Part shown: positions 11,132 through 57,453 of the stretch, in pieces | Layout: each line of letters opens with the position of its first letter | Numbering within the stretch: the stretch's first letter is position 1 | Assembly: GCA_946185535.1 (NCBI GenBank) | Contig: CAMHJX010000003.1 | Coordinates: 1 to 64,000 of the forward strand | DNA from: an uncultured Bacteroidales bacterium | GTDB lineage: Bacteria; Bacteroidota; Bacteroidia; Bacteroidales; F082 | Direction: 5' to 3' | Length of the DNA stretch: 64,000 bases | The notes under the pieces: generated by a model | What the model was told of the DNA's origin: nothing | What the model saw: the letters and a program-made list of their open reading frames with translations, nothing else | Database searches by the model: none | Made by a program: the position numbers and the translations under genes

Positions 11132-11192
11132 ATTAGTTTTATTCATCAAGTAGATTTTTCAGTAAGACGAAGAAAAGCGGATTTTGTTACAG

Positions 11193-29244: not shown

Positions 29245-30408
29245 TTACTTCGGAAGCATTTGTCCCTTCCTCGTGAGAATGGCCTGAAGCAGATAAACGA
29301 CTGCGATGATTGCGCCTATCATATACGGTGACAGATGGGCCACCGCTGCGATAGGTGAGACGATAAGAGGAGAGAGGAACTGCCCCAAATAAAGTGCCGT
29401 GGAAAGCAGAGGCATCACGGTGGTGGCGGCTTCCTTGCCCGCTTTCACGCTGCCGATGGTGTTCAGGTAGGGAACGCCGATGCCGTTGGCAATGCCGATG
29501 AGTGCCGAGCCAAGCAAAACAAGTGACAATGAAGTCCCTCCGGCAAGGCATAAATACCCCGCCATGAAGCCGATGGGGGCAGCGTATTTCATCTGTGCGG
29601 CAAAGCGTTTCATCATTGCGCCAAAAACCAAGCCTACCAGGAAAGCCACCACATCCAAACCCATCATCACCAAGGTGATTCCCGTCACCGAAAGCATCCC
29701 AGAGGCCGTCAGCGCGAAATTGGTGGGGTAGATGAAGAAAAGGATCATCACTAAGAACATTCCCACGACCGATGGATGGAATTTCTTTAGTAAGTTTAGA
29801 GTTGAGGGTTTAGAGTTTAGAGTTGTTGGGTCTTTTTTCATCAGGCTTTCGTTGGGCAGGAAAAGCATAACGAGCACCACGGCGATGAGGCCAAGCAGAT
29901 AAACCAAGAAGGCGTAGTTCCAACTGACTGCCGCCAACATTCCCGCGAGGAAAGTGGCCACCACGCCGCCCATCTGGTTCATGGCGGCGGCAAGACCCAT
30001 CAGGCGGGCTTGCTCCTCGGGAGGGAAATAGTAGGCCAAAAGACCCGTGGAAAGCGGCATAATCATGCCCACACTCACGCCTAACAAGGCCCTGAGTACC
30101 AGCAAAACAACGATGTTATCGGCGAAAAAGGCCCCGCTTCCTGCCACCACATAAAGCAGCAGGCCGCAAAGGGCGATAGTGCGGGTGCGCATCACGCAGC
30201 AGAGCATCGGGAAACAGAGGTTGGTGAGGATGATGAACAGCGCGGGCATGCTCACCACAAACTGGATGAGTAGAGGATTGGCGTCAGCGAAATGGGCGTT
30301 GATGGCGTTCAAGGCAGGTGCGACGGCGGCTCCCGCCATCACGGTCAACAGCGACATCGAAAGGATGGTCGCAACAAGAATCTTTGGATTTGATGAATCT
30401 CTCTTCAT
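29245..30408 (-). CDS. MFS transporter carrying an in-frame repeat insertion
   Basis: A 387-residue major facilitator with about twelve membrane segments, in the drug:H+ or sugar-efflux style (MPALFIILTNLCFPMLCCVM, then GVSVGMIMPLSTGLLAYYFP). The start is the ATG at 30408. In the central loop near residue 195 the peptide TTLNSKPSTLNL is encoded by a short repeat (29793-29827) that is also found in the macrodomain gene. Since it sits in the loop between halves, the transporter may tolerate it. A -7 box is at 30507-30514 and a conserved hairpin lies just upstream of that. The substrate is unknown. Confidence 0.87.
   Translation of the reverse strand: MKRDSSNPKILVATILSMSLLTVMAGAAVAPALNAINAHFADANPLLIQFVVSMPALFIILTNLCFPMLCCVMRTRTIALCGLLLYVVAGSGAFFADNIVVLLVLRALLGVSVGMIMPLSTGLLAYYFPPEEQARLMGLAAAMNQMGGVVATFLAGMLAAVSWNYAFLVYLLGLIAVVLVMLFLPNESLMKKDPTTLNSKPSTLNLLKKFHPSVVGMFLVMILFFIYPTNFALTASGMLSVTGITLVMMGLDVVAFLVGLVFGAMMKRFAAQMKYAAPIGFMAGYLCLAGGTSLSLVLLGSALIGIANGIGVPYLNTIGSVKAGKEAATTVMPLLSTALYLGQFLSPLIVSPIAAVAHLSPYMIGAIIAVVYLLQAILTRKGQMLPK
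29793..29827. repeat. Intragenic repeat unit agtttagagttgagggttta type
   Basis: A simple, AT-rich repeat built of TTTAGAG and GTTGAGGG words. It lies in frame inside the MFS gene and recurs inside the macrodomain gene (41326-41390) and, inverted and looser, at 44339-44407. Confidence 0.75.
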
Positions 30409-36630: not shown

Positions 36631-37665
36631 TTAGTTCTCTATTTCACATTCAACATTGAGTCCGGCACGCAGTTGTTTCATGGCCTCGGCATTGTTGTCG
36701 GCATCGAAGGCGATCTTGACGGGAATGCGCTGCTCTGTCTTGACGAAGTTGCCCGTTGAATTGTCTTGCGGCACAATGGAATAACGGGCACCAGTGGCAT
36801 TGGAGATGGCCGTCACGGTGCCGTGGAACGTCTGGTTGGGAAGGGCATCGACAGTGATTTTCATTTTTGAACCGACATTGAGGTGGCGCAGTTGTTTCTC
36901 GCGGTAGTTGGCGATGACCCAGCAGTCTTCGTCGCTGACGATGCTGATGAGGTTCATCCCGGGTTGGATGAGTTCGCCCTCATGGATGGTCTTTGGCGAA
37001 GTGTAGCCGTCGCAAGGCGCGGTGATGACGGTATAGGAAAGGTCGAGTTCGGCGAGGTCGAGCGCGGCCTCGGCGATGGCGATGCCCGCATCGTTTTGGT
37101 CGAGGCGTTGGGTCTGTTCGCTCTTGACGAGGCGGGTGCTTTGCTGCTGTTGCTTCATGGTCTCGTAGCTGGCTTTCATGGCCTCGTATTGCGTTTTCAC
37201 ACCTTCGAATTCGGCCTTGGTGACGGTCTCGCTTTCGTAAAGATTCTTGTAGCGAAGGTAGTCGGCTTCGGCCTTTTGCAGGCGGATTTCCATCTCGCGC
37301 AGATTTGCATCGCTGACAGCGATATTGTTTTGGGTGGTGCGGATGCTGGTGTTCATGGCAGCCTTGCCGACAGTGGCGTTTTTGTAGTTGGCCCGTGCCT
37401 GCGCCAATTGCAGGCGAAACTCTGCGTCTTCAATCAGGACTAAGGTATCGCCTTTCTTGACGTGCTGGAACTCGTCGAAACGGATCTCCTTGATGAAGCC
37501 AGGCACCTTGCTGCTGACGGGCGCAATGTGCTGATACACTTGGGCATTGTTGGTATATGTGGTCTTCGTGACATGCCAAAACTGGGCGCAGACCCACACG
37601 ATGCCTGCAATGAGTAGTGCGACAACGATGATGTTGGCAACGATTTTTTTGGTTTGTTTCTTCAT
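36631..37665 (-). CDS. HlyD/EmrA-like membrane fusion protein
   Basis: A 344-residue periplasmic adaptor. One N-terminal membrane anchor (ANIIVVALLIAGIVWVCAQF) is followed by a barrel/lipoyl half (HIAPVSSKVPGFIKEIRFDE), a long helical hairpin (LQKAEADYLRYKNLYESETV, then KAEFEGVKTQYEAMKASYET), and the second lipoyl part (LDLAELDLSYTVITAPCDGY). Barrel motifs DALPNQTFHGTVTAISNATG finish it. It joins the MFS pump encoded by the next gene to the TolC-type channel encoded 4 bases upstream. Confidence 0.93.
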   Translation of the reverse strand: MKKQTKKIVANIIVVALLIAGIVWVCAQFWHVTKTTYTNNAQVYQHIAPVSSKVPGFIKEIRFDEFQHVKKGDTLVLIEDAEFRLQLAQARANYKNATVGKAAMNTSIRTTQNNIAVSDANLREMEIRLQKAEADYLRYKNLYESETVTKAEFEGVKTQYEAMKASYETMKQQQQSTRLVKSEQTQRLDQNDAGIAIAEAALDLAELDLSYTVITAPCDGYTSPKTIHEGELIQPGMNLISIVSDEDCWVIANYREKQLRHLNVGSKMKITVDALPNQTFHGTVTAISNATGARYSIVPQDNSTGNFVKTEQRIPVKIAFDADNNAEAMKQLRAGLNVECEIEN

Positions 37666-37668
37666 GGC

Positions 37669-38976
37669 TTAGAGTTTTCCGGTTAAATAATTGAGGTTGA
37701 GGTAATAATAAATGATGCTGATTTTCGCGTTGACCCATTCCAACTCGGCGGAGAGTTTGCTGTTGGAGGCATCGAGCATGTCGGTGAGGCGAGCCAAGTC
37801 GTTGTCGTAGCGGTTGCTCGTCATGCGGTAGTTTTCATTGGCCAAAACCAAGGTTTTCTCACAGATTTCCAAGTCTTTGATTGCCTCCTGATATTTCATG
37901 AACACCGCATGGATGCCGTTGTCGATGCCCTCGGCCACCACGGATTTCTCTTCTTGGCTTCGCCGCGTCTCCAAGTTGGCCTTTCGGATGCTGTGGGTGC
38001 TTTTGTATAGTGCCGAGAGGTCGTATTGCAGGCCCAAACCGACAAACCAATAGTTGAAGTTGTTGTTGAGCACAGGCACTTCGATGAGGATTGGGCCGTC
38101 CAAGTGGTCTTCTGCGACGAGGGCAAGTTTGGGCCGTCGTGCCGACTTCGCGAGTGATGCTTTCTCTTCGTTCATGCGAATAACGAGGTCGAGTTGCTGA
38201 AGGGTTGGCGAGGATGCAATGGCGTTATTATGCCAATCGCTTTCCGAAAGCATGGGTAAAGTGTTTGCTATCAAAGTGGTATCGGGTTCGATTTCGGTAG
38301 ATGTTTCCAACCCGATGGCTTGTGTTAGTTGATAATTAAGAATGTCTTTTGCATTGTTGAGGCGGGTGCGTTGCATTTTGAGGTTTTCGAGTTGCAACTC
38401 ATAGCGCGTGAGGTCGTTTTTCAACGCCATGCCTTGCTCATGGCGGTTTTGGAGGTCTTCGAGCACCTTTTCCACGAGGACTATATTTTGTTCAAAGACA
38501 CGCAGTTGGTTGTTGAGTTTGTAGATGTCCAAATAATAGCCTGCCAGCAGAAAATGTATCTCCTGTCGTTTCTGTTCGTGCTGCAATTGGGCCATCTGGA
38601 CACCCAAGTCGGCTAATGCAATGCCGCTGTTGAGGGCACCGCCGGCATAGATGACCTGCGCCACCTGAAGGCTGAAGTTGTTGCCAAAATGCGGCATGTC
38701 GATGGGCATCCCGTTGCTGAAGTCCCGGTCCCAGAGGTAGCCGTTGCCGATGTAGGAGGCCGAAAGCGAGGTCTTGACGTCGGGCAGGCGACCGCTTTGC
38801 GCCGAAAGCAGGCCTTCTTGTGCGACTTGGATTCCGATACTACTGGTTTTCAATACTTTGTTGTTCTCATCGGCGAGGCGAAACAACTCTTCAAGCGTCA
38901 TGCTTCGTTTCTGTGCCTGTGCCGAAACACACAGCGCGAGCGACAGAAACATCACTGCGTAATGTCTGATTCTCAT
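37669..38976 (-). CDS. TolC-family outer-membrane efflux protein
   Basis: A 435-residue outer-membrane channel with signal peptide RHYAVMFLSLALCVSAQAQ and two long helical hairpin repeats (LQHEQKRQEIHFLLAGYYLD and, in the second half, LDASNSKLSAELEWVNAKIS). It is the first gene of the pump operon, with an internal LEELFRLADENNKVLKTSSIG start of the barrel-helix part typical of Bacteroidota TolC proteins. A -7 box at 39129-39136 lies about 150 bases upstream. No dedicated regulator gene is adjacent. Confidence 0.92.
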   Translation of the reverse strand: MRIRHYAVMFLSLALCVSAQAQKRSMTLEELFRLADENNKVLKTSSIGIQVAQEGLLSAQSGRLPDVKTSLSASYIGNGYLWDRDFSNGMPIDMPHFGNNFSLQVAQVIYAGGALNSGIALADLGVQMAQLQHEQKRQEIHFLLAGYYLDIYKLNNQLRVFEQNIVLVEKVLEDLQNRHEQGMALKNDLTRYELQLENLKMQRTRLNNAKDILNYQLTQAIGLETSTEIEPDTTLIANTLPMLSESDWHNNAIASSPTLQQLDLVIRMNEEKASLAKSARRPKLALVAEDHLDGPILIEVPVLNNNFNYWFVGLGLQYDLSALYKSTHSIRKANLETRRSQEEKSVVAEGIDNGIHAVFMKYQEAIKDLEICEKTLVLANENYRMTSNRYDNDLARLTDMLDASNSKLSAELEWVNAKISIIYYYLNLNYLTGKL

Positions 38977-39128
38977 AAAACGATAAATAAAGGTTATTGC
39001 ATGGATTTTTGTCCTGTTTTTACCTAAGATTAAACAACTAAAATTCTGGATTTCAGCTGGTAACAGGATTTACATGCCTAAAGGCAAAACGCGTTCATTA
39101 TACGCCAAAAACTCCATTTTTCGGGTTG

Positions 39129-39136
39129 CAAAAGTA
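39129..39136 (-). promoter_or_regulatory. -7 box for the efflux operon
   Basis: Minus-strand TACTTTTG, just downstream of hairpin copy D. The leader to the ATG at 38976 would be about 145 bases. Confidence 0.4.
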
Positions 39137-39175
39137 CGGAAAATTGAAGAAAGGATGTTCCCTCTTGAGCGAAAA

Positions 39176-39213
39176 AAATCCGCAACCCAAACCCCTGCCC
39201 GAATTGCGGATTT
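39176..39213. terminator. Conserved-hairpin family, copy D
   Basis: AAATCCGCAA pairs with TTGCGGATTT. The left flank GTTCCCTCTTGAGCGAAAAA is shared with copies A to C. The hairpin lies at the truncated end of the cation antiporter gene. Confidence 0.7.
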
Positions 39214-39583
39214 GAGTCATTATGCCCGCAATAATGGTCAGAGGAAGCTCAATACGCACTGTCTCCTTTTTCGCGACAATTGGAAAGACCAAAGCAGAAC
39301 AACCGAGGATGACCAAGGTGTTGATGATGTTTGAGCCGAGTACATTGGTAATGGCCAAATCGGTTGAATGAGTTAAAACAGAGGTCATGTTAACGATGAA
39401 CTCTGGCATGGATGTGCCGAACGCCACCACTGTAAGGCCAATCATAAGATCTGACACGCCCAACCGCTTTGCCAGGTCGGAAGCTCCGTCCACCAGCCAG
39501 TCCGCTCCTTTGACCAAAATCGCCAGTCCCCCAGCAAAGCAAATAACCAAAAACCATATTGTTGATAACAAATGTGTGAACAT
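39180..39583 (-). pseudogene. Truncated calcium/sodium antiporter (first third only)
   Basis: The ATG at 39583 opens a CaCA-family exchanger: GGLAILVKGADWLVDGASDL, then GLTVVAFGTSMPEFIVNMTS, which is the first alpha repeat, then LPLTIIAGIMTQ. Family members are about 310-370 residues with a second, inverted repeat; here homology ends near residue 120 where the conserved hairpin begins, and the frame then runs through the hairpin to a chance stop at 39098. Without the second alpha repeat it cannot form the ion site. Confidence 0.75.
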
Positions 39584-39595
39584 AATCAAGTTGTA

Positions 39596-39814
39596 CTAAG
39601 GTTTTGAAACATTTGCTTTGACAGCAGACTGAGGCGCAATTCCAAAAGCCTCGAGAGCGCACTCAAGCTCTGCCTGATTGTCACTGAGAAGCATGAGCCG
39701 GTCGCCCACATGGAGATGCAAGGCAGGCACGCCGAAACGGCTGCCCGCCTTGCCTGCCAAGATGCTGGCAAAGAATAGGATTGACAGAATCAGTAAAACG
39801 AATTCTATTTGCAT
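39596..39814 (-). pseudogene. Internally deleted potassium/proton antiporter (NhaP2/CvrA-like)
   Basis: A 72-codon frame that joins the two ends of a much longer protein. The first 32 residues, LLILSILFFASILAGKAGSR and then FGVPAL, are the N-terminus of an NhaP2-type K+/H+ antiporter. From residue 33, HVGDRLMLLSDNQAELECAL and then EAFGI, it is the extreme C-terminal TrkA-C-type domain. About 400 or more codons between them are missing, with the frame kept. Confidence 0.7.
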
Positions 39815-39820
39815 GAGTCC

Positions 39821-40201
39821 TTATCCCTCTGGTTTCAATTCTTTCAAAACACTAAGAAACGCCTCCGCATCAGCACCTTTGTAAACAGTGATGTCGGAAT
39901 TCGGCTTGAATTCGTAATCTGAGTAACGAAAGATTTGAACTGCTGCAAATTGTTGGTCTTTAGTGTAAAGCACGAACAATTCGATAGGGCTAAGTGTCTT
40001 GCAATGCAGATTCTTTATATCGTTGAAATGATGCTTTTCAAGACATGCTCTCAAGTCGTCGTAGTCGTCGGCGATGAAGTAATACATTTTTTTGCTTACC
40101 GCCATCTGCGTGGGCATATAGTGCCAGCGGCGGAAGAAGCCTTTGCGTTCCAATTCAGGGAGTTCGTGGTTTTTGAGGTTCTTATAATTTGTTGTTTCCA
40201 T
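39821..40201 (-). CDS. Hypothetical cytoplasmic protein (126 aa)
   Basis: A soluble protein without signal peptide. The start MKMETTN-side ATG at 40201 (METTNYKNLKNHELPELERK) is preferred to a longer frame reading through simple-repeat DNA. It contains RRWHYMPTQMAVSKKMYYFI and LSPIELFVLYTKDQQFAAVQ. I do not recognise the family. It could be a small enzyme-inhibitor or immunity-like protein, but nothing here shows that. Confidence 0.55.
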   Translation of the reverse strand: METTNYKNLKNHELPELERKGFFRRWHYMPTQMAVSKKMYYFIADDYDDLRACLEKHHFNDIKNLHCKTLSPIELFVLYTKDQQFAAVQIFRYSDYEFKPNSDITVYKGADAEAFLSVLKELKPEG

Positions 40202-40318
40202 TTTATCGTTGTTGAATTGTTGATTGTTTAATTGTTTGATTGTTGGGATGTGCATACAATCATCCCGTTAGGTGCGAAATGCACCTAAAAAGGGGAAAAC
40301 GAAAAAACAGGAAACGGT

Positions 40319-40702
40319 CTAAATCAGGATACGTCTCAACCGGAACACATGGTATTCCTTCGGGAACGCAACTAACTGGGTGACAGAATGATGAATTAAC
40401 CTTGAAACAGCAGGCTTGTGCGTCGAAAGCAACACCTGCCTGATGCTGACATTACTGACGGTTCGGGTGCGGTTGGGCAAGACTCGCACACTGAAACCAG
40501 GCGAGCAAACCGTGCTTTCCTGTTGCACGGCATGACGGGTCTCGGCGGCAGCATTGTAAAGATTCATCATGTTGGCTTCCATAGAGTCAACAAAGACAAC
40601 ATCGTCCGACTTTGAGTACTCGATTCCCATTGAAACTGACTGGTTTACACACCCATTCAGGCTCGCAAGGAAGAAGAACAATATGGTGGCTAAAAAGCGC
40701 AT
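40319..40702 (-). CDS. Hypothetical lipoprotein (127 aa)
   Basis: A short exported protein: RFLATILFFFLASLNGC is a signal with lipobox SLNGC. The mature part has no recognisable domain and becomes Arg- and Val-rich (VRVLPNRTRTVSNVSIRQVL). A -7 box is at 40725-40732, supporting expression. It follows the seven-gene HxlR/ACGX set but has its own promoter. Confidence 0.5.
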   Translation of the reverse strand: MRFLATILFFFLASLNGCVNQSVSMGIEYSKSDDVVFVDSMEANMMNLYNAAAETRHAVQQESTVCSPGFSVRVLPNRTRTVSNVSIRQVLLSTHKPAVSRLIHHSVTQLVAFPKEYHVFRLRRILI

Positions 40703-40724
40703 GGATGCGATTTTTTAGAAGATG

Positions 40725-40732
40725 CAAAGATA
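40725..40732 (-). promoter_or_regulatory. -7 box for the 40.3 kb lipoprotein
   Basis: Minus-strand TATCTTTG, 23 bases before the ATG at 40702. Confidence 0.5.
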
Positions 40733-40792
40733 GTGATAATTCTAATTCAACACCCAAAATATCCTCGGAAAGGAAGGTCCCGATGGATGTTT

Positions 40793-41602
40793 CTATAAAA
40801 CCCGCTGATAAATCTCCATGTCTACATCCTTGAACACATTGAAAACCACCTGTTTGGCACTGCAATCGGGATGCTCGGTCAAGTAATCTTTGACGGTTCG
40901 CACGGCGATTTCGGCGGCCATTTGGTTCGGAAAACGGAACTCGCCTGTGGAGATACAGCAGAAGGCGATGCTTTCAAGATGATTTTCATCGGCACAAGCC
41001 ATGATGCTTCGGTAGCATGAAGCCAGTTGTTCCTTTTGGAATTCCGTCGGGATGCCGTTGGGGATGATAGGTCCCACCGTATGAATGACATACTTACACG
41101 GCAGATTATAGGCCCTCGTGATTTTGGCCTGCCCCGTCGGCTCCTCGTGACCCTGTTGGAGCATCAGTTGGTGACATTCCTCGCGTAACTGCACACCTGC
41201 TGCGGAATGAATCGCATTGTCGATGCACTTGTGCAAAGGATGGAAGCAGCCCATCATCTGGCTGTTGGCCGCATTGACGATGGCGTCTACCTTTAATCGG
41301 GTTATGTCGCCTTGCCAAATTGTATAGTTTAGAGTTGAGGGTTTAGAGTTTAGAGTAGTTGAAAGTGGATAGTTTAAAGTTGATAGTTTAGTTAGGTCAA
41401 CAATTCCTTTTTCCTGTAATTGCGTCTGCAGTTCCTCGTCCTGCAAACGCAGAAATTCCTCGCTGACGGGTTTCGGCCAACGCACATTGCGCAAGGCACG
41501 GAACAGGTCGCGCTTGCCTTGCAAATCCGATGGAATCTCCATCTCGGAATATTGCGGGTCTTCTTTCAGAAGGTAATCAATCAAATAATCTAAACGATTC
41601 AT
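40793..41602 (-). CDS. Zinc-type macrodomain protein, ADP-ribosyl hydrolase (SirTM-linked)
   Basis: A 269-residue protein. Residues about 95-265 are a macrodomain: WQGDITRLKVDAIVNAANSQ, then GCFHPLHKCIDNAIHSAAGV and LREECHQLM. The Cys/His pattern GCFxPxHxCIDN is that of the zinc-containing macrodomains linked to class M sirtuins, which remove ADP-ribose from proteins. The substrate loop ISTGEFRFPN is intact. The linker near residues 75-92 contains LSTTLNSKPSTLN, encoded by the same short repeat as in the MFS gene. It is 38-47 bases behind the sirtuin gene and so co-transcribed with it. Confidence 0.88.
   Translation of the reverse strand: MNRLDYLIDYLLKEDPQYSEMEIPSDLQGKRDLFRALRNVRWPKPVSEEFLRLQDEELQTQLQEKGIVDLTKLSTLNYPLSTTLNSKPSTLNYTIWQGDITRLKVDAIVNAANSQMMGCFHPLHKCIDNAIHSAAGVQLREECHQLMLQQGHEEPTGQAKITRAYNLPCKYVIHTVGPIIPNGIPTEFQKEQLASCYRSIMACADENHLESIAFCCISTGEFRFPNQMAAEIAVRTVKDYLTEHPDCSAKQVVFNVFKDVDMEIYQRVL
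41326..41390. repeat. Intragenic repeat in the macrodomain gene
   Basis: The same AT-rich repeat as at 29793-29827, extended with further GTTTAAAGTTGATAG words. It encodes the STLN/TLNSKP stretch in the linker before the macrodomain, in frame. Confidence 0.75.
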
Positions 41603-41649
41603 CTTCAACAATTCAACAGTTCAACAAATCGAAGATTCAACGTAGTTAA

Positions 41650-42483
41650 TCAACGATTCAACAATTCTTCTAGTATTTCCCCAATATCCCCATCAATAAC
41701 AATCGACCTGTCTTTGATTTGTTCCACGGTGAACGCCTCGCCGAGGTTGATGGTGGCGTAGGTCGCCTCGGGGTTTTTGTATGTCATTTGCATGAACGGC
41801 AGTTTGATGATGGTCGGGGTGTTACTGCCTATGCCGAGGTCCCAATACAACACCTTTCCGTGTTGGTGGCTGTTCACGAAATCGAGGTAACGCTGTGCAG
41901 CCTTGTGCCAGCCTTCGTCCTCCACAAAGGTGTCATCGGCACGCAGGTTGACCTTCATGGGGCCGCCACAGACGGGACAATGGGGAATCAGTTCGGTCGG
42001 TATTTTCATATCGTTTTGTGTCGCAACCAGTTTCCTGATGGTTTCCTCGTTGTCGTAGGTCTTTTGGTGACAAGGTTTCGCACATTGGAACAACCCATAA
42101 TCGCCTTGGGTGTAGAATAGCCTTTGTTTGTCGAAGCCTACCTTTTGAAATTGGTGGTCGACATTGGTGGTGATGACGAAATAGTCCTTGCCCTTCACTA
42201 GTTTCAGGAGGTTGTCGTAAACGGGTTTCGGGGCGGGCACATAGCGGTTGTGGTAAATGTGTCGGCTCCAGTAGGCCCAATGTTCCTCCTCGGTCGGGAA
42301 CTGGTGGAATCCCGCCGTGTACATGTCGGTGAAGCCGTATTTCTCGATGAAATCGGAAAAATACTTTTGGAAGCGTTCGCCATTATAGTTGAAGCCTGCC
42401 GAGGTGGAGAGGCCTGCGCCAGCGCCAATCACGATGGCATCGGCCTTTTGCAGAGTCTGCTGAAGTTTCTGAATGCTATCCAT
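41650..42483 (-). CDS. SirTM-class sirtuin, probable protein ADP-ribosyltransferase
   Basis: A 277-residue sirtuin. IGAGAGLSTSAGFNYNGERF starts the NAD site and TTNVDHQFQKVGFD is the Asn/Asp loop. Where deacetylase sirtuins have the catalytic His motif LHG, this has FYTQGDYG, with Gln, as in class M sirtuins that transfer ADP-ribose rather than deacylate. Zinc Cys pairs are CAKPC and CPVC. The ATG at 42483 overlaps the end of the nitroreductase gene. The usual GcvH-L and LplA2 partners of SirTM operons are not here, so the protein target is unknown. Confidence 0.86.
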   Translation of the reverse strand: MDSIQKLQQTLQKADAIVIGAGAGLSTSAGFNYNGERFQKYFSDFIEKYGFTDMYTAGFHQFPTEEEHWAYWSRHIYHNRYVPAPKPVYDNLLKLVKGKDYFVITTNVDHQFQKVGFDKQRLFYTQGDYGLFQCAKPCHQKTYDNEETIRKLVATQNDMKIPTELIPHCPVCGGPMKVNLRADDTFVEDEGWHKAAQRYLDFVNSHQHGKVLYWDLGIGSNTPTIIKLPFMQMTYKNPEATYATINLGEAFTVEQIKDRSIVIDGDIGEILEELLNR

Positions 42484-43366
42484 TTGATTTGTTGTTGTCT
42501 TTGCTATACCTATGGATTTTATTCGACCTATCCTTCTGTGTGCCACGGGCATAGACGATGTCAGGGTAGCCAAAGCCGACGATGAGACCCGTGTAGTGGT
42601 CGGTGGGGATGTTGAGCATCTTGCGGGCTTCGGGTACCAACTCGTTGAGCACCTCGCTCGGGTAGCTCATGATAGCCGTGCCCAAGCCGAAAGCGTTGGC
42701 TAAAAGCTCAAAATAGGCTGTTGCGATGATGCAGTTGGCCTTGGCGTCTTCGGCCCATTTGCCGCTGCATTTCTCATGGGCGATGAAAAGATGAGGTGCA
42801 CCACAAAACAGCATGTCACCTTCGCGAACAGTCTCTTCGCTCTCTTTCATCTTGCCGTAGAAGAATGGGCTGAAGCTATGCGTGTAAATGCCACGTTTGG
42901 CCAAACTTTCCATCTTGTCGTAAGCCACCTGCCAAATCTCGTCCACACGCTTTTTGTCATCGATGACAGTGTATTCCACATTACAGGAGTTGCCGCCCGT
43001 AGGGGCGTTCTCCATCGCGGAAAGGATACGGTCAAGGATGACTGGATCGACGTTGTCGTCCATGAAGCGGCGGCACGAGCGGCGGTATTTCACCAAGCGT
43101 TCCATCTGCTCGCCTATGTTCTTGTCGGGTTTTGGTGTCGAGGTTTCTGGCTTTTTGCCAAAGATGGAGATGGCGCCTTCGGGGCATACTGCTAGACAGT
43201 GCTCGCAACGCCAGCAGCCGCGCCAACCGTAGCGTTCGAAAGGCTGCATCACGGGCAAGCCATTCTGCATTTTCAGCACCATGCCGGTGCATACATTCAC
43301 GCATTGGCCGCAACCGATGCATTTGTTTCTGTCAACCTCGAAATGAGTGGTGAATTCTATGGCCAT
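42476..43366 (-). CDS. Nitroreductase with N-terminal ferredoxin domain
   Basis: A 296-residue protein. Residues 1-75 are a two-cluster ferredoxin (CIGCGQCVNVCTG, then CWRCEHCLAVCPEG), and residues 90-290 are an FMN-dependent nitroreductase (VKYRRSCRRFMDDNVDPVIL, then ENAPTGGNSCNVEYTVID, then ELLANAFGLGTAIMSYPSE). It likely reduces nitro, quinone or enone compounds using ferredoxin electrons. It starts 2 bases after the oxidoreductase gene stop and overlaps the sirtuin gene. Confidence 0.92.
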   Translation of the reverse strand: MAIEFTTHFEVDRNKCIGCGQCVNVCTGMVLKMQNGLPVMQPFERYGWRGCWRCEHCLAVCPEGAISIFGKKPETSTPKPDKNIGEQMERLVKYRRSCRRFMDDNVDPVILDRILSAMENAPTGGNSCNVEYTVIDDKKRVDEIWQVAYDKMESLAKRGIYTHSFSPFFYGKMKESEETVREGDMLFCGAPHLFIAHEKCSGKWAEDAKANCIIATAYFELLANAFGLGTAIMSYPSEVLNELVPEARKMLNIPTDHYTGLIVGFGYPDIVYARGTQKDRSNKIHRYSKDNNKSNG

Positions 43367-43368
43367 AG

Positions 43369-44334
43369 TTATTCCATTGTTATCACAATCTTGCCGCCTG
43401 CACCACCTTTCTCCAAGAGGGTGTGCGCTTCCGCGATTTCATCCATCCGGAACACTTTGGCGTACAGCGGCTTGATGTGCTGCTCGTTAATCAAACGGAA
43501 AAGCGAGTCGATTATTTCCTGTTTCGGAAAATTGCTGAAAAACCCGCTGAGAAACACGCCATTGGGAATGTATTTGATAGGGTCGAAATGCTCCACGGTG
43601 AAGACATTGCCCAAGATGCCTGTGTTACACACATAGCCTGGACGACTGACACAGCGCAGACTGTCCTGCAAGGTGGCGGGGCCTACTAGTTCCAAAACCT
43701 TGTTTGGACGCATATCGTTGGGCAGTCTTTCCGACAAATGGCCGTCATCAATGCAGCAGAAGTCTGCCCCGATGGTTTTCAGACGGTCGAAGTCCTTTTC
43801 CTTGCGGCAAGCCGCAATCACCTTGGCACCCAATGCTTTACCGAGTTGGATGGCGGCCTGTCCGACGGTGCTGGTGGCACCACGTACCAACAATATGTCG
43901 CCTTCGTTAAGCAAAAGGCACTCCGTCAGCGAGCCGTAAGCCGTGAAATAGGTTTCTGGAATGGCAGCCAACGAGACCCAGTCCAAGTCGGTCTCCACTT
44001 TGAAGACATTGGTAGCGGGCAGCAGCGCATACTCGGCATAACTACCGTTGAACGAGCGGCCCATACCTCCCATCAGCGCAATGACTTTGTCTCCTTTCGA
44101 AAAATGGCTGTCGGAAGGGTCGGCAATCTCCCCCACGCACTCGATGCCAGGAACGATGGGCTTCTGGATGTAGTCGTTCTCGATTTCGAACATCCGCAGT
44201 AGGGCTTCGGAGTGGTTCAGTCCAGCGGCGTGAATCTTCACCAACACCCAACCCGAACGCACTTTGGGAACAGGTATTTCAGAGGCTTTCATTTCCTCCG
44301 CCGAGCAACGATGATCTAATTGTATTGCTTTCAT
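43369..44334 (-). CDS. Zinc-type alcohol dehydrogenase / NADPH:quinone reductase-like protein
   Basis: A 321-residue medium-chain dehydrogenase/reductase. The GroES-like N-terminal part reads VKIHAAGLNHSEALLRMFEI and the Rossmann part has ILLVRGATSTVGQAAIQLGK near residue 145. The structural zinc Cys set and typical catalytic zinc ligands of ADHs are not obvious, so it is closer to the quinone oxidoreductase (zeta-crystallin) branch. The ATG at 44334 is chosen over six extra codons. It is separated from the radical SAM gene by 60 bases holding a simple repeat, and its stop is 2 bases before the nitroreductase start. Confidence 0.88.
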   Translation of the reverse strand: MKAIQLDHRCSAEEMKASEIPVPKVRSGWVLVKIHAAGLNHSEALLRMFEIENDYIQKPIVPGIECVGEIADPSDSHFSKGDKVIALMGGMGRSFNGSYAEYALLPATNVFKVETDLDWVSLAAIPETYFTAYGSLTECLLLNEGDILLVRGATSTVGQAAIQLGKALGAKVIAACRKEKDFDRLKTIGADFCCIDDGHLSERLPNDMRPNKVLELVGPATLQDSLRCVSRPGYVCNTGILGNVFTVEHFDPIKYIPNGVFLSGFFSNFPKQEIIDSLFRLINEQHIKPLYAKVFRMDEIAEAHTLLEKGGAGGKIVITME

Positions 44335-44338
44335 TATC

Positions 44339-44407
44339 ATTGAAACTTTCAACTATTAACTCTAAACTCATAACTGACTCTAAACTCTACACTCTCAACT
44401 CTCAACT
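44339..44407. repeat. Simple repeat ACTCTAAACTC/CTCAACTCT words
   Basis: The gap between the radical SAM stop and the next ATG consists of AACTCTAAACTCATAACTGA-type words. This is the reverse-complement word set of the intragenic repeats in the MFS and macrodomain genes. Confidence 0.6.
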
Positions 44408-45426
44408 AACTTCCAGCATTGCGGGTCAGCAGCAAAGAAATCATGCGTGTAACCATACGCCACTGCGGGACAACCTCGGCAGAACCGCAGCAACTCACAT
44501 TTTCCGCATTTCTCAAACTTCTCATATTGGCGGTAATAGTCCATTTGCGGCGAAGTCCACAAATCGTAAAGCGGTGTCTCGAAAACATTGCCCACCTTGC
44601 TTTCAAAGCGGCGGCAGGCCATCACATCACCGTTGGGCAAAATAGTGAAATGTCCGTGACCACAGTTGCAGCCGTCATAAACAGTATCGTCGTCCAAGTT
44701 TTCCGGAATATTGAACTCGCCAATTTCATATAGATACAGCCCCCAAAGATGGTCTTTCAGGTTAAAGGTGGTTTTGCAACTGTCTCCATAGTCCATGTAC
44801 TTTTTCCAGCAGGTATCCAGCACCTGGCGGTACTGTTGCGGCGTAAGGTGTGCGCTCTTTTCCAAACTTGTGGGACAGTATCGCGCAAAGGCGAACACGT
44901 CAGCCTCGTACTTCACCACAGTATCGATGATTTCTGGCATCTGGTCGGCATTCACGCCCGAGACAGTAGTCATAATGGCCACACGGATGCCATTGCGGTG
45001 CAGCACCTCGATTTTCTCCAAAGTAGTGTCGAACGAGCCAGGCTTGCGCATGAAGTCGTGCGTCTCACGGTTGCCGTCGATGGAGAGCTGGTATTTCTCA
45101 CAACCGTAAAACTTCAACTTTTGGCAGTTCTCATCGGTCAAGTGAAACGGATTGCCCAGAATGGTAAACGGGATTTCCTTCGCTTTCAGCATCCCAAGGA
45201 TGTCCCATACTTGCGGGTGCAAAAGAGGATCGCCTCCCGTGACATAGAAGTACGGAAGGCGACCGCCCATCTTTTCGCACATTTCCACGCAGCTGTCAAT
45301 CACCTTCTTTGCCCGCTCCACGCTGACCGAAAGCAAATCGGGATGGCCTTCGGAAAAAATGTAACAGTGCTTGCAACGTTGGTCGCAATAGTCAGTGATG
45401 TGCCACTGGAATGAGAAATACTGCAT
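44395..45426 (-). CDS. Radical SAM/SPASM-type maturase of the ACGX peptide system
   Basis: A 343-residue radical SAM enzyme. The 4Fe-4S motif is CDQRCKHCYIFSEG near residue 14 (Cx3Cx2C), followed by FYVTGGDPLLHPQVWDILG. The C-terminal part carries the auxiliary-cluster Cys set of a SPASM-type domain: CNCGHGHFTILPNGDVMAC, then KCGKCELLRFCRGCPAVAYG. It lies 8 bases after a small peptide gene made of ACGSACG repeats, the arrangement of the annotated ACGX radical SAM system, so it probably modifies the Cys or adjacent residues of that peptide. The chemistry is not known. Confidence 0.88.
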   Translation of the reverse strand: MQYFSFQWHITDYCDQRCKHCYIFSEGHPDLLSVSVERAKKVIDSCVEMCEKMGGRLPYFYVTGGDPLLHPQVWDILGMLKAKEIPFTILGNPFHLTDENCQKLKFYGCEKYQLSIDGNRETHDFMRKPGSFDTTLEKIEVLHRNGIRVAIMTTVSGVNADQMPEIIDTVVKYEADVFAFARYCPTSLEKSAHLTPQQYRQVLDTCWKKYMDYGDSCKTTFNLKDHLWGLYLYEIGEFNIPENLDDDTVYDGCNCGHGHFTILPNGDVMACRRFESKVGNVFETPLYDLWTSPQMDYYRQYEKFEKCGKCELLRFCRGCPAVAYGYTHDFFAADPQCWKLVES

Positions 45427-45434
45427 GTTTCGGC

Positions 45435-45629
45435 TTATTTCGCACCGCAGGCGCTACCGCAAGCACTCGGTTTTTCCTCTTTCTTGGGCTCGGCGGCACC
45501 ACAGGCACTGCCACAGGCCGAAGGCTTTTCTTCTTTCTTGGGTTCAGCTGCGCCACAGGCACTGCCGCAAGCGCTCGAACTTCTCATAGCGAACGAGGCC
45601 ACGAAGCCTCCAAATTCTGATCTCTTCAT
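45435..45629 (-). CDS. ACGX-repeat RiPP precursor peptide
   Basis: A 64-residue peptide. A short leader (MKRSEFGGFVASFAMRSS) is followed by two full repeats of SACGSACGAAEPKKEEKP and a terminal SACGSACGAK, giving six Cys all in ACG triplets. Charged Lys/Glu spacers separate the Cys groups. It is placed between an HxlR regulator (26 bases upstream) and its putative maturase (8 bases downstream). It is most likely a ribosomal peptide modified at the ACG sites; no protease or exporter gene is adjacent. Confidence 0.85.
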   Translation of the reverse strand: MKRSEFGGFVASFAMRSSSACGSACGAAEPKKEEKPSACGSACGAAEPKKEEKPSACGSACGAK

Positions 45630-45655
45630 CGTTGTTTGAGTTTTAGTTGGACAAT

Positions 45656-46033
45656 CTATTTACTTGGCTTTGAATGATTCTTACGGTCGGTGATAATGTC
45701 GCTGAAATGCTCCAGTCCCCATGTCAGCAGCGCATCCAAATGAGGCATGAGACTCTTTCCGCGTTCGCTGAGTCGATATTCCACTCGTGGCGGAACTTCT
45801 GTGAACACCTCGCGACTGATAATGCCATCGTCTTCAAGATGGCGTAGCGTTGAGGTCAGCATTTTTTGTGAGATGTCTGGGATTTGTCGCCACAAGTCCT
45901 TGAATCTCAGTACTTCCTTCTGTTCCAAGGTGTAAAGCACCAACAACGACCATTTGTCAGTGATATGCGAAATCACGTTGCGTATCGGACAATCGGGAAA
46001 GGTGGCGTTTTGTATTTCTCTTTTGTTGTTCAT
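45656..46033 (-). CDS. HxlR-family transcription regulator of the ACGX operon
   Basis: A 125-residue winged-helix regulator with the HxlR pattern CPIRNVISHITDKWSLLVLY, then RFKDLWRQIPDISQKMLTST, LRHLEDDGIISREVFTEVPP and VEYRLSERGKSL. The N-terminal Cys (FPDCPI, residue 15) is the position that senses electrophiles or oxidants in YodB/HypR-type members. It heads the seven-gene set and probably regulates it. A -7 box at 46053-46060 and an ACTTAC/GTAAGT dyad at 46085-46121 lie upstream. Confidence 0.9.
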   Translation of the reverse strand: MNNKREIQNATFPDCPIRNVISHITDKWSLLVLYTLEQKEVLRFKDLWRQIPDISQKMLTSTLRHLEDDGIISREVFTEVPPRVEYRLSERGKSLMPHLDALLTWGLEHFSDIITDRKNHSKPSK

Positions 46034-46052
46034 TGTTTCTGGATTAACGAGG

Positions 46053-46060
46053 CAAAAATA
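46053..46060 (-). promoter_or_regulatory. -7 box of the HxlR/ACGX/SirTM operon
   Basis: Minus-strand TATTTTTG, 20 bases before the ATG at 46033. Confidence 0.5.
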
Positions 46061-46084
46061 TAGAAAAAATTCTAATTTTCAATC

Positions 46085-46121
46085 ACTTACCTTTTGTCAA
46101 TACACAAACCTTTTTGTAAGT
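46085..46121. promoter_or_regulatory. Candidate HxlR operator
   Basis: ACTTAC (46085-46090) and GTAAGT (46116-46121) form an inverted pair separated by 25 bases, each followed inward by a similar CTTTT/TTTTTG stretch. Sites of HxlR-family members often use ACTTAC-type half-sites. It lies 25-60 bases upstream of the -7 box. Confidence 0.4.
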
Positions 46122-46158
46122 ATTGCTGAAAAACAATAAGTTAATACAAGAAGAAAAT

Positions 46159-46495
46159 TCACTTCCCCGCTAGCCAGCACCCCGCCGCCATAACGAGCGT
46201 GGCAACGATGAAAATCCAGCCAATAGGCTCACCTAAGATGACCACCGAGAGGAAGGCTCCGATGAAGGGCGCCAAAGCGTAGTAGGTGCTTGTCTTGGCA
46301 GCACCGATGCCACGTTGGGCAAGGGTGTAAAAGAAGATGCTCAACCCGTATGCCACAAAACCGAGCATCAAGAGGATGACCAAATGTCTCCACATCGGGA
46401 ATGCTTCACCTAACGACAATGCTCTGCACAAGGCACCCAAACCCGAACCGAAGCCTTTCACCGTCACAATTTCCATCGGGTCTTCGTGGGTTTCA
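46159..46495 (-). pseudogene. EamA/DMT transporter C-terminal fragment
   Basis: The frame encodes the last 110 residues of a drug/metabolite transporter (ILLMLGFVAYGLSIFFYTLA, then AKTSTYYALAPFIGAFLSVV and AATLVMAAGCWLAGK-like end). The first six or so membrane helices are missing; upstream of ETHEDPMEIV the frame is only the antisense of an AraC fragment. Confidence 0.7.
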
Positions 46496-57075: not shown

Positions 57076-57453
57076 TCATTTCTCCAGCATCAGTCGCCGG
57101 TGTTCCAAGCCCCATTCCGTCATGCGATAGACGATGACATAGAGCTGTTTGCCGTGGCCGGTGAGGTTGTATTCCACCCGCGGCGGGTAGCCATAGCACT
57201 CGTGTTTCTCTATGAGGCGGTCGTCGGCCATCTGGCGTAGCCTTTCGGTCAGCACCTTGTCGCTCAGTCCGTGGACAGCTGTCAAGATGTCCTTGAATCG
57301 TGTGTTGCCGCAGAGGATGGCGGTGAGGATCTCTACCGTCCACTTGCTGCGCAGCACATCCATCGTGTCGCCGATGGAAAGCACCTCGCGGCACAGCACC
57401 TGTGATTCTTTGGAGGCTATCTCGTTGAGGATGTTTTCAATGTCGTTCTGCAT
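57076..57453 (-). CDS. HxlR-family transcription regulator
   Basis: A 125-residue winged-helix regulator: CREVLSIGDTMDVLRSKWTV, then GNTRFKDILTAVHGLSDKVL, LRQMADDRLIEKHECYGYPP and VEYNLTGHGKQL. It is a divergent HxlR member, distinct from the one at 45656-46033, with its Cys at residue 21. It follows the TfoX-like gene by 20 bases and lies upstream of the radical SAM gene, either of which it may control. Confidence 0.88.
   Translation of the reverse strand: MQNDIENILNEIASKESQVLCREVLSIGDTMDVLRSKWTVEILTAILCGNTRFKDILTAVHGLSDKVLTERLRQMADDRLIEKHECYGYPPRVEYNLTGHGKQLYVIVYRMTEWGLEHRRLMLEK

What the first reader, a model, noticed from the sequence alone, without database searches (positions are those of the whole stretch)
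40793..46060. Seven-gene operon joining an ACGX RiPP system to a SirTM sirtuin and macrodomain
HxlR regulator, ACGX-repeat peptide, radical SAM maturase, quinone-reductase-like enzyme, ferredoxin-nitroreductase, SirTM and zinc macrodomain lie in one direction with gaps of 26, 8, 60 and 2 bases, an overlap, then 47 bases. HxlR proteins with an N-terminal Cys sense electrophiles, SirTM/macrodomain pairs carry out reversible protein ADP-ribosylation and are tied to oxidative stress in Gram-positives, and the two middle enzymes reduce quinones and nitro compounds. A Cys-rich modified peptide could be a thiol-based scavenger or sensor in the same response. The usual SirTM partners GcvH-L and LplA2 are absent, so the ADP-ribosylation target is open and could be one of the operon's own products. 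I know of no described link between ACGX peptides and SirTM.
Basis: partly seen in the sequence, partly recalled or inferred. Interest (0 to 1): 0.82.

Follow-up and report, generated by a model that had tools for sequence, protein, structure and literature searches.

The report
Redox-stress operon pairing RiPP and SirTM
A gut-type bacterium carries one operon that joins a repeat-rich, probably enzyme-modified small peptide to an enzyme pair of the kind that adds and removes ADP-ribose on proteins, and the same two parts are found joined in unrelated bacteria, often with the same kind of stress-sensing regulator.

Summary
In detail: seven packed minus-strand genes at 40793-46033 (HxlR, ACGX peptide, ACGX radical SAM enzyme, quinone-reductase-like, ferredoxin-nitroreductase, SirTM, Zn-macrodomain). 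The ACGX/SirTM link is not private to this genome. In a clostridial order, 26 of 392 genomes carry the ACGX enzyme (27 places). SirTM lies within 5 kb downstream at 12 places, 13 if two contig ends belong together; about 0.2 was expected by chance, ignoring relatedness. Trees show the link made or lost repeatedly. In the window's genus a 36-base operator heads this operon and also ACGX-free operons of HxlR, another gene, SirTM and Macro. One such genome (L103) matches the window on both flanks, so the ACGX genes sit in an exchangeable slot. Against tidy co-regulation, two sister ACGX operons lack the operator, and so do four of four SirTM genes examined that lie apart from ACGX. GcvH, source of the known SirTM target, is missing from 15 of 16 clostridial genomes searched.

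Best reading: an HxlR-controlled redox/electrophile-stress module with a fixed ADP-ribosylation switch and a swappable effector, here a RiPP, perhaps with Cys-Asp/Glu thioethers. The SirTM target is open; the peptide is a minority candidate.

The parts
46086..46121 (-). putative HxlR operator, two boxes: ACTTAC-N5-GGTTTGTGTATTGAC-N4-GGTAAG
   Evidence: pattern found once in each of 21 of 99 genus genomes with up to 2 mismatches, none for the backward control pattern; 15 of the 21 sites head HxlR, 4 lie directly before SirTM, 2 run off contig ends; first seen by comparing upstream regions. HxlR binding not tested
46052..46082 (-). promoter-like elements (TTGAAA ... TATATTTTTGC), next to the operator
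   Evidence: read from sequence; a sigma-70-like match at 46082-46055 is listed (9 such matches in the region against a shuffle mean of 5.2); the Bacteroidales -33/-7 consensus is recalled, not from a call
45656..46033 (-). HxlR/DUF24-family regulator, 125 aa, Cys15 followed by P-I
   Evidence: PF01638 104 bits; Cys15 in 60 of 61 readable rows; C+2 is V or I in 61 of 63 rows
45435..45629 (-). ACGX-repeat precursor peptide, 64 aa, six Cys in three ACGSACG doublets with Glu/Lys/Pro-rich spacers
   Evidence: TIGR04341 40.8 bits over cut-off 28; repeats counted
44395..45426 (-). radical SAM/SPASM enzyme of the ACGX system, 343 aa
   Evidence: TIGR04340 556 bits over cut-off 400; C14, C18, C21 and the C-terminal Cys set invariant in an alignment of 18
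43369..44334 (-). quinone/enone oxidoreductase-like MDR protein, 321 aa
   Evidence: TIGR02824 170 bits, below its cut-off of 296.8; PF08240, PF13602, PF00107
42476..43366 (-). ferredoxin-type 4Fe-4S domains fused to nitroreductase, 296 aa
   Evidence: PF00881 72.8 bits and several Fer4 families
41650..42483 (-). SirTM (class M sirtuin), 277 aa
   Evidence: 5a3a E 8e-69, QG motif; Asn and Arg corresponding to SpySirTM Asn118 and Arg192 by hand count on the alignment
40793..41602 (-). Zn-macrodomain-type ADP-ribosyl hydrolase, 269 aa
   Evidence: NF003163 357 bits over cut-off 272; 8rsi E 5e-77 with Cys, His and Cys of the loop aligned
41320..41405 (-). in-frame low-complexity insert (STLN-type repeat) inside the macrodomain gene
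   Evidence: nucleotide alignments to several sister Macro genes break near here; same repeat words at about 29794-29822 and 44367-44406

Best explanation
This is a redox/electrophile-stress operon with a modular build. Shown by sequence: (1) HxlR and a double-box operator-like block next to a promoter-like site form the front, and the same front stands before ACGX-free operons. (2) A SirTM/Zn-macrodomain pair forms the back. (3) The middle differs between relatives: an MBL-like 262-aa protein, a cupin, a Nim-like flavoprotein, or, here, the ACGX peptide, radical SAM enzyme and flavo/Fe-S reductases. (4) ACGX and SirTM genes have become neighbours, or parted, several separate times. Inferred: thiol-reactive compounds (quinones, nitro-compounds, reactive aldehydes, NO) modify HxlR Cys15 and switch the operon on. 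The radical SAM enzyme then crosslinks the Cys of each CX3[D/E] (or CX2[D/E]) unit to the acidic side chain, leaving the first Cys of each doublet free. The quinone-reductase and ferredoxin-nitroreductase proteins reduce the offending compounds and/or recycle the peptide. SirTM and the macrodomain put ADP-ribose on, and take it off, a protein that in most of these organisms is not GcvH, as an on/off control of the response. Whether HxlR represses or activates is not settled.
For: Identity of the seven genes. ACGX-SirTM neighbourhoods in Bacteroidales and Clostridia with opposite gene orders, SirTM-Macro and Macro-SirTM. Clostridial order: 27 ACGX places in 26 of 392 genomes (one place below the family cut-off); SirTM downstream on the same strand within 5 kb at 12, 13 with the broken gene of G410; 9 negative with at least 4 kb downstream, 5 undecidable; about 0.2 expected within 9 kb on either side, relatedness ignored. 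Presence anywhere: SirTM in 18 of 26 ACGX genomes against 111 of 366 others, Fisher p 1e-4. Radical SAM tree: 8 changes of linkage, at least 6 forced by starred branches. SirTM tree: 16 changes, at least 8 forced. Operator pattern shared by this operon and ACGX-free SirTM operons in the genus. Same place, different middle: L103 (G024) matches the window upstream (45707-46190) and downstream (39638-40711) but holds a cupin gene; G031 matches downstream at 97-98.6% and holds the MBL-like gene; L107 matches upstream. Clostridial double box: 17 of 21 matches by HxlR in 69 loci, 827 kb, with a pattern fitted to those regions; the right-hand box alone is in 8 of 10 HxlR upstream regions of unlinked SirTM loci, and its backward control has no match. 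CX2-3[D/E] at 159 of 196 non-leading Cys. GcvH in 1 of 16 clostridial ACGX+SirTM genomes.
Against: Of the six ACGX genomes in the genus only this one shows the operator within 2 mismatches: G033 and G071 have HxlR but not the site, and for G112, G114 and G066 the stretch before HxlR is not on the contig. Of 12 Bacteroidales ACGX loci with HxlR upstream, 6 have the site (up to 2 mismatches) and 6 do not even at 4 mismatches. In four of four cases examined where ACGX and the SirTM copy lie apart (L119, L242, L244, L245) no such site is near SirTM. Most SirTM genes in the genus have no ACGX partner. Nothing here shows induction, modification or activity. The HxlR Cys is widely conserved in its family (recalled), so its presence is weak evidence of sensing. 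G472/L174 has stop codons inside both its radical SAM and SirTM genes. L161 and L165 have SirTM without a detected macrodomain. The clostridial order was picked through G123, itself a linked genome.
Confidence: 0.57

Rival explanations
1. The ACGX peptide itself is the SirTM target: the radical-SAM-modified, sulphur-rich peptide takes the place of lipoyl-GcvH-L, and ADP-ribose on its Asp/Glu (or Cys) switches it off until the Zn-macrodomain frees it.
For: In the known extended operon SirTM modifies the operon's own sulphur-carrier protein after a partner enzyme has modified that protein, and oxidoreductases accompany it (passages of PMC4518038 and PMC11490716). Here GcvH was found in 1 of 16 clostridial genomes; genes of the biotin/lipoate-ligase family number none to two per genome and none lies by SirTM. 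The peptide is the only carrier-like product of the operon, and Cys and acidic residues recur in its repeats. The link changed repeatedly on the trees.
Against: ACGX loci without SirTM keep the same acidic repeats. SirTM-Macro operons with a closely similar HxlR and the same operator lack ACGX, so SirTM has another target in those genomes.
Confidence: 0.2
2. The two halves share only a stress regulon: ACGX RiPP and SirTM/Macro act in separate branches, joined because the same kind of HxlR controls both.
For: Exchangeable middle slot and shared operator; an extra operator stands before a quinone-reductase gene in L161.
Against: Does not by itself explain why ACGX joins SirTMs of different lineages, though a shared regulator could; four of four SirTM genes examined that lie apart from ACGX lack the operator.
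Confidence: 0.45
3. The ACGX peptide is a secreted bacteriocin-like RiPP and SirTM/Macro are chance neighbours.
For: ACGX is a RiPP-type family; RiPPs are often antimicrobial (general knowledge).
Against: The recurrent neighbours that I named are HxlR, nitroreductase, PNPOx-ferredoxin, quinone reductase and DUF1848, with no exporter or protease among them; many other neighbours of the 32 genome-contig loci were not named. Chance is unlikely by the counts and trees.
Confidence: 0.05
4. The peptide is a metal- or cluster-binding Cys peptide made under redox stress, with the radical SAM enzyme setting its geometry.
For: CX3C doublets and Fe-S-rich partner proteins.
Against: The five methanogen peptides read have single Cys with CX2[D/E] and no CX3C doublets, so paired Cys is not general.
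Confidence: 0.15

Closest known systems
Extended SirTM operon of Staphylococcus/Streptococcus (GcvH-L, Macro, SirTM, LplA2, OYE, LLM)
   Same: SirTM with QG motif beside a Zn-macrodomain, accompanied by oxidoreductases, suspected oxidative-stress role (passages of PMC4518038 and PMC11490716)
   Different: no GcvH-L or LplA2; instead a RiPP-type precursor, a radical SAM enzyme and an HxlR regulator with an operator-like block
Minimal SirTM/Zn-Macro pair (e.g. Methanobrevibacter oralis, Enterococcus, Treponema in PMC11490716)
   Same: same two enzymes; targets stated as unknown in that paper (passages)
   Different: here behind HxlR, operator and an ACGX cassette
ACGX radical SAM/SPASM system (TIGR04340/TIGR04341)
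   Same: both models exceed their cut-offs
   Different: a link to HxlR, SirTM and macrodomain is not in the model names or descriptions shown; no paper found
PapB/freyrasin ranthipeptide system
   Same: CX3[D/E] repeats; PapB links Cys to Asp/Glu and tolerates 0-6 residues between (abstract and passages of PMC9413430)
   Different: ACGX enzyme scores 63 bits on the PapB model against a cut-off of 340; its radical SAM motif starts at residue 14, leaving no room for an N-terminal recognition domain
HxlR/DUF24 thiol sensors (YodB, HypR, HxlR of Bacillus; names partly recalled)
   Same: fold family and N-terminal Cys
   Different: V/I instead of Lys two residues after the Cys, so the Cys11-Lys13 formaldehyde bridge of B. 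subtilis HxlR (passages of PMC7835342) cannot form

Membership tests
SirTM (class M sirtuin) | QG in place of the catalytic HG | tested here: met
   window protein; 73 of 74 SirTM rows QG, one with an unreadable first residue
SirTM (class M sirtuin) | gene beside a Zn-type macrodomain | tested here: met
SirTM (class M sirtuin) | ADP-ribosyltransferase, no deacylase activity | not testable with these tools
   needs enzyme assay
Zn-macrodomain | zinc loop with Cys-His-Cys (which residues bind zinc is recalled; the paper passages say only three residues of the Zn-loop) and MacroD-like sequence | tested here: met
   MGCFHPLHKCIDN aligns with LGCFIPMHNCIDN of 8rsi; NF003163 over cut-off
Zn-macrodomain | removal of ADP-ribose from protein | not testable with these tools
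   needs enzyme assay
Extended SirTM operon | GcvH-L and LplA2 in the operon | tested here: not met
   neither among the seven genes; the genome has one GCV_H and one BPL/LplA/LipB-family gene, each on another contig
ACGX radical SAM system | TIGR04340 enzyme next to TIGR04341 peptide | tested here: met
   556 and 40.8 bits, both over cut-off
ACGX radical SAM system | peptide modified by the radical SAM enzyme | not testable with these tools
   needs co-expression and mass spectrometry
Ranthipeptides (PapB type) | CXn[D/E] motifs | tested here: inconclusive
   159 of 196 non-leading Cys in 55 peptides have D/E at +3 or +4; the motif alone does not prove thioethers
Ranthipeptides (PapB type) | PapB-family enzyme | tested here: not met
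   NF047865 63.2 bits against cut-off 340
HxlR/DUF24 thiol sensor | HxlR-family protein with N-terminal Cys | tested here: met
   PF01638 104 bits; Cys in 60 of 61 readable rows
HxlR/DUF24 thiol sensor | redox or electrophile response of that Cys | not testable with these tools
   needs DNA-binding and induction assays
B. subtilis HxlR formaldehyde sensor | Lys two residues after the Cys | tested here: not met
   V or I in 61 of 63 rows

The most novel reading that the evidence does not exclude
SirTM acts on the ACGX RiPP: a radical-SAM-modified, ribosomally made sulphur peptide replaces lipoylated GcvH-L as the reversibly ADP-ribosylated carrier in anaerobes that lack GcvH, which would be the first RiPP known under ADP-ribosyl control.
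Probability: 0.2. Interest if true: 0.88.

Novelty: new variant of a known kind. Interest (0 to 1): 0.7.

Why it matters
The 2024 Zn-macrodomain paper states that GcvH-L is the only known SirTM target and that targets of other SirTM/Zn-Macro systems are unknown (passage). This family of operons gives a concrete, recurrent partner set, mostly in organisms where no GcvH was found, and a short candidate list to test. It also gives ACGX peptides, on which my searches found no paper, a likely physiological setting (reactive-species stress beside an HxlR switch), and offers a defined operator-like site whose inducer can be searched for.

Tried and rejected
Chance neighbourhood: rejected by counts and trees; the Poisson figures ignore relatedness and serve only as a rough scale.

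GcvH elsewhere in the genome as hidden partner: unlikely in Clostridia (1 of 16 draft genomes); possible in the Bacteroidales, where each of the three genomes searched has one GCV_H gene on another contig. PF03099 also catches biotin ligases and cannot tell them from LplA.

SirTM-specific acid residues in the peptide: not found; loci without SirTM have the same acidic repeats.

Control in trans of a distant SirTM by the ACGX-operon HxlR: no operator near SirTM in the four cases examined (L119, L242, L244, L245); other ACGX genomes with a distant SirTM (such as G158, G414, G421) were not examined.

Formaldehyde-type HxlR: rejected by the missing Lys.

Structure prediction of the radical SAM enzyme: four attempts, queue full each time, so no model and no fold comparison was made. 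The padloc and phrogs libraries were not used. Unlinked SirTM loci were picked by hand from the listings, not at random. The clostridial double-box pattern was written after looking at the aligned regions (the output was cut); only the right-hand box had a backward control. The methanogen palindromes had no control.


Full report
OBSERVATION. The families are as named: HxlR (PF01638, 104 bits), ACGX precursor (TIGR04341, 40.8 bits, cut-off 28), ACGX radical SAM/SPASM enzyme (TIGR04340, 556 bits, cut-off 400), a PIG3-like MDR oxidoreductase (170 bits, below the family cut-off of 296.8), a ferredoxin-nitroreductase fusion (PF00881 plus Fer4 models), SirTM, and a protein-ADP-ribose hydrolase of the Zn-macrodomain type (NF003163, 357 bits, cut-off 272). 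SirTM aligns with S. pyogenes SirTM 5a3a at E 8e-69; QG replaces HG, and the Asn and Arg whose mutation sharply lowered SpySirTM activity align by hand count (passages of PMC4518038). The macrodomain aligns with 8rsi and 5kiv with Cys, His and Cys of its loop kept.

HOW WIDESPREAD. In the window's genus 6 of 99 genomes have the ACGX enzyme and 37 of 99 have a SirTM match, a few of them fragments. Five of the 6 ACGX genomes have SirTM against 32 of the other 93 (Fisher p 0.026). The two lie together in 3 of 6: this genome, G114, and G112, where two extra genes separate them. They lie apart in G033; G071 has no SirTM; contigs are broken in G066. One scan of genome contigs with the window enzyme gave 32 loci from Bacteroidales/Bacteroidetes, Clostridia and Methanobacteriales; a single-protein query favours close relatives. 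In the larger Bacteroidales order 5 of 393 genomes have the enzyme; the three outside the genus showed no SirTM in the stretch fetched, one of them (G755) having almost no downstream sequence.

THE CLOSTRIDIAL TEST. The order of G123 was searched because G123 carries a linked pair, so that genome itself is not independent evidence. Of 392 genomes drawn evenly from the order 26 have the ACGX enzyme, at 27 places, one of them (G333) below the family cut-off; at most five candidates per genome were scored, so this may be a lower bound. SirTM lies downstream on the same strand within 5 kb at 12 places: G123, G232, G387, G413, G391, G445, G450, G429, G465 (one of two copies), G279, G515, G472. A 13th, G410, has two parts of its enzyme gene on two contig ends, one of which continues into macrodomain and SirTM. 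Nine places with at least 4 kb downstream have none, and five have too little sequence. With random placement about 0.2 would be expected within 9 kb on either side (relatedness ignored). G445 and G450 lack a detected macrodomain at the place, and G472 has stop codons inside both genes, so it may be decayed or misassembled. SirTM is present anywhere in 18 of 26 ACGX genomes and 111 of 366 others (Fisher p 1e-4).

REPEATED ASSOCIATION. On a quick tree of 63 ACGX enzymes (23 linked to SirTM and/or macrodomain, 23 not, 17 undecidable) the link changes at least 8 times, at least 6 of them forced by starred branches. Two of the linked rows, L061 and L062, have only the macrodomain in the DNA held; L058 has the pair on the other strand; G410 was labelled by hand. 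On a quick tree of 74 SirTMs (22 linked, 41 unlinked, 11 undecidable) the link changes 16 times, at least 8 forced, and is hardly more clustered than shuffled labels (62 of 500 shuffles as low); the unlinked rows are hand-picked. The window SirTM sits among unlinked SirTMs of its own genus, while the clostridial linked ones lie on several other branches and nearly all have the opposite gene order. So the link has been made, lost or moved many times; the trees do not tell gain from loss.

THE SWITCH. Upstream of HxlR lies a conserved block, ACTWAC-N5-GGT-N2-GTRTATTGAC-N4-GGTAAG, next to the promoter-like site (46086-46121). It stands before the window and L048 operons (ACGX with SirTM), before L037 and L040-L042 (ACGX; of these only L042 has enough downstream sequence to say that SirTM is missing, and L037 keeps a SirTM remnant), and before SirTM operons without ACGX (L103, L106-L110). 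Over 99 genus genomes it occurs once in each of 21, and the backward control pattern never. Of these 21 sites 15 head HxlR, 4 stand directly before SirTM with no HxlR between, and 2 run off contig ends. Limits: of the six ACGX genomes in the genus only the window's shows the site; G033 and G071 have HxlR without it, and the stretch is not on the contig in G112, G114 and G066. Of 12 Bacteroidales ACGX loci with HxlR upstream 6 have the site with up to 2 mismatches and 6 (L038, L039, L043-L046) do not with 4; of the 20 fetched genus SirTM loci 8 have it with up to 2 mismatches and 2 more with 4. In Clostridia a related double box, AGTTAC-N5-GGTAACTA followed by AAAAAGTGCGTACTT, lies by HxlR. Its right-hand part was found in 19 of 36 HxlR upstream regions: 11 of 26 in ACGX loci and 8 of 10 in unlinked SirTM loci. 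In 69 loci (827 kb) 17 of 21 double-box matches lie by HxlR, 2 by ACGX genes, one before a separate quinone-reductase gene in L161 and one elsewhere; the pattern was fitted to these regions, and only the right-hand box was given a backward control, which had no match. GTWAC palindromes lie between HxlR and the ACGX genes in three of four methanogen loci looked at and before HxlR in the fourth, without a control. Against a general co-regulation: in G033, G316, G466 and one copy of G465, where the SirTM copy lies away from ACGX, no such site is near it.

THE EXCHANGEABLE SLOT. L103 (G024) matches the window upstream of and through most of HxlR (45707-46190, 86%) and again downstream of the operon (39638-40711, 89%), but between HxlR and SirTM it has a cupin gene. 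In G031 (L104) the stretch downstream (window 36998-40747, with two insertions in L104) is 97-98.6% identical, and the operon reads HxlR, a 262-aa MBL-like protein, SirTM, Macro; the contig begins inside HxlR. L107 shares the upstream flank to 46273 and has the MBL-like gene. That protein has no Pfam hit at E 1e-5, and its name comes from its look, not from a call. L036 has a Nim-like flavoprotein (155 bits, under its cut-off of 270) between quinone reductase and SirTM. The simplest reading is that the front (operator, HxlR) and back (SirTM, Macro) are kept and the middle is swapped.

THE PEPTIDE. In 55 ACGX peptides read by script (some cut by contig ends) there are 323 Cys. Of these, 127 are the first Cys of a CX3C doublet, and of the other 196, 159 have Asp or Glu at +3 or +4. 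The five methanogen peptides use CX2[D/E] at each Cys but one, which runs into Ns. PapB links Cys to Asp/Glu in CX3[D/E] and tolerates other spacings (abstract and passages of PMC9413430). Cys-Asp/Glu thioethers are therefore my preferred guess for the modification, but the enzyme is not PapB-like by score (63 bits, cut-off 340). The acid is kept with or without SirTM, which points to the radical SAM enzyme rather than SirTM as its reader.

WHAT THE SWITCH MIGHT SENSE. The HxlR Cys is present in 60 of 61 readable rows, with V or I rather than Lys two residues on in 61 of 63, so the Cys-Lys formaldehyde bridge known from B. subtilis (passages of PMC7835342) is out. The recurrent neighbours (nitroreductase, PNPOx-ferredoxin, quinone reductase, Nim-like) favour quinones, nitro-compounds or similar oxidising electrophiles. 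This is inference.

THE ADP-RIBOSYLATION TARGET. GcvH-L is the only target known, and other targets are stated as open in PMC11490716 (passage). GCV_H was found in 1 of 16 clostridial ACGX+SirTM genomes searched and once, on another contig, in each of the three Bacteroidales ones. These are draft genomes, the clostridial ones of unstated completeness, so single absences are weak, but 15 of 16 is hard to put down to gaps. Hence the target is probably something else in most of these organisms. The ACGX peptide is a candidate by analogy with lipoyl-GcvH-L, yet SirTM occurs without ACGX in most genus genomes that have it, so a common host protein is at least as likely.

LITERATURE. Searches for ACGX (28 papers, 20 listed, none on this peptide; 8 not seen), the TIGR04340/TIGR04341 names (none), SirTM with radical SAM (none), SirTM/HxlR/nitroreductase/Zn-Macro (5 papers, none joining SirTM to the others bar Zn-Macro), and macrodomain/sirtuin/RiPP/radical SAM (12 papers hold three terms, 10 listed, none of these with radical SAM) found no paper joining these (open-licence PMC only). 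Only passages of PMC4518038, PMC11490716, PMC9413430 and PMC7835342 were read, not whole papers.

VERDICT. Real, recurrent and, as far as these searches go, undescribed; a new variant of the SirTM/Zn-Macro operon rather than a new kind of system. The modular picture is well supported by sequence, the shared control in part. The chemistry and the ADP-ribosylation target are open.

Noticed in passing
window 41320-41405 and 44334-44406: The same low-complexity repeat words (AGTTTAGAGTT type) occur in-frame inside the macrodomain gene, in and beside the radical SAM/quinone-reductase gap, and at about 29794-29822.
   Followed up: partly
window 57103-57375 (minus): A second HxlR-family stretch (PF01638, 78.6 bits); the operator of this operon occurs once in the genome, not there.
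   Followed up: no
L067 3975-9655 (G112): A TPR protein and a 1260-aa protein with a cleaved-adhesin domain and a secretion C-terminal sorting domain lie between ferredoxin-nitroreductase and SirTM.
   Followed up: partly
L037 2883-2972: Only 30 residues of SirTM match after the quinone-reductase gene, like a remnant, in a close relative of the window operon.
   Followed up: no
L161 about 11107-11137: An extra copy of the clostridial operator stands before a separate quinone-reductase gene in an ACGX genome.
   Followed up: partly
L056 2384-3307, L065 9613-10536, L170 6098-7006, L060 11835-12710: DUF1848 sits between the ACGX genes and the macrodomain in several Clostridia, and DUF5131 follows SirTM in one; both are named as domains of unknown function.
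   Followed up: partly
L050-L054, L059: Methanogen loci carry ACGX enzymes, an HxlR-like gene in several, and no SirTM in the DNA fetched; the peptides read (L050-L054) have single Cys with CX2[E/D].
   Followed up: partly
L161, L165: SirTM next to ACGX without a detected macrodomain, so the eraser may be elsewhere or lost.
   Followed up: no
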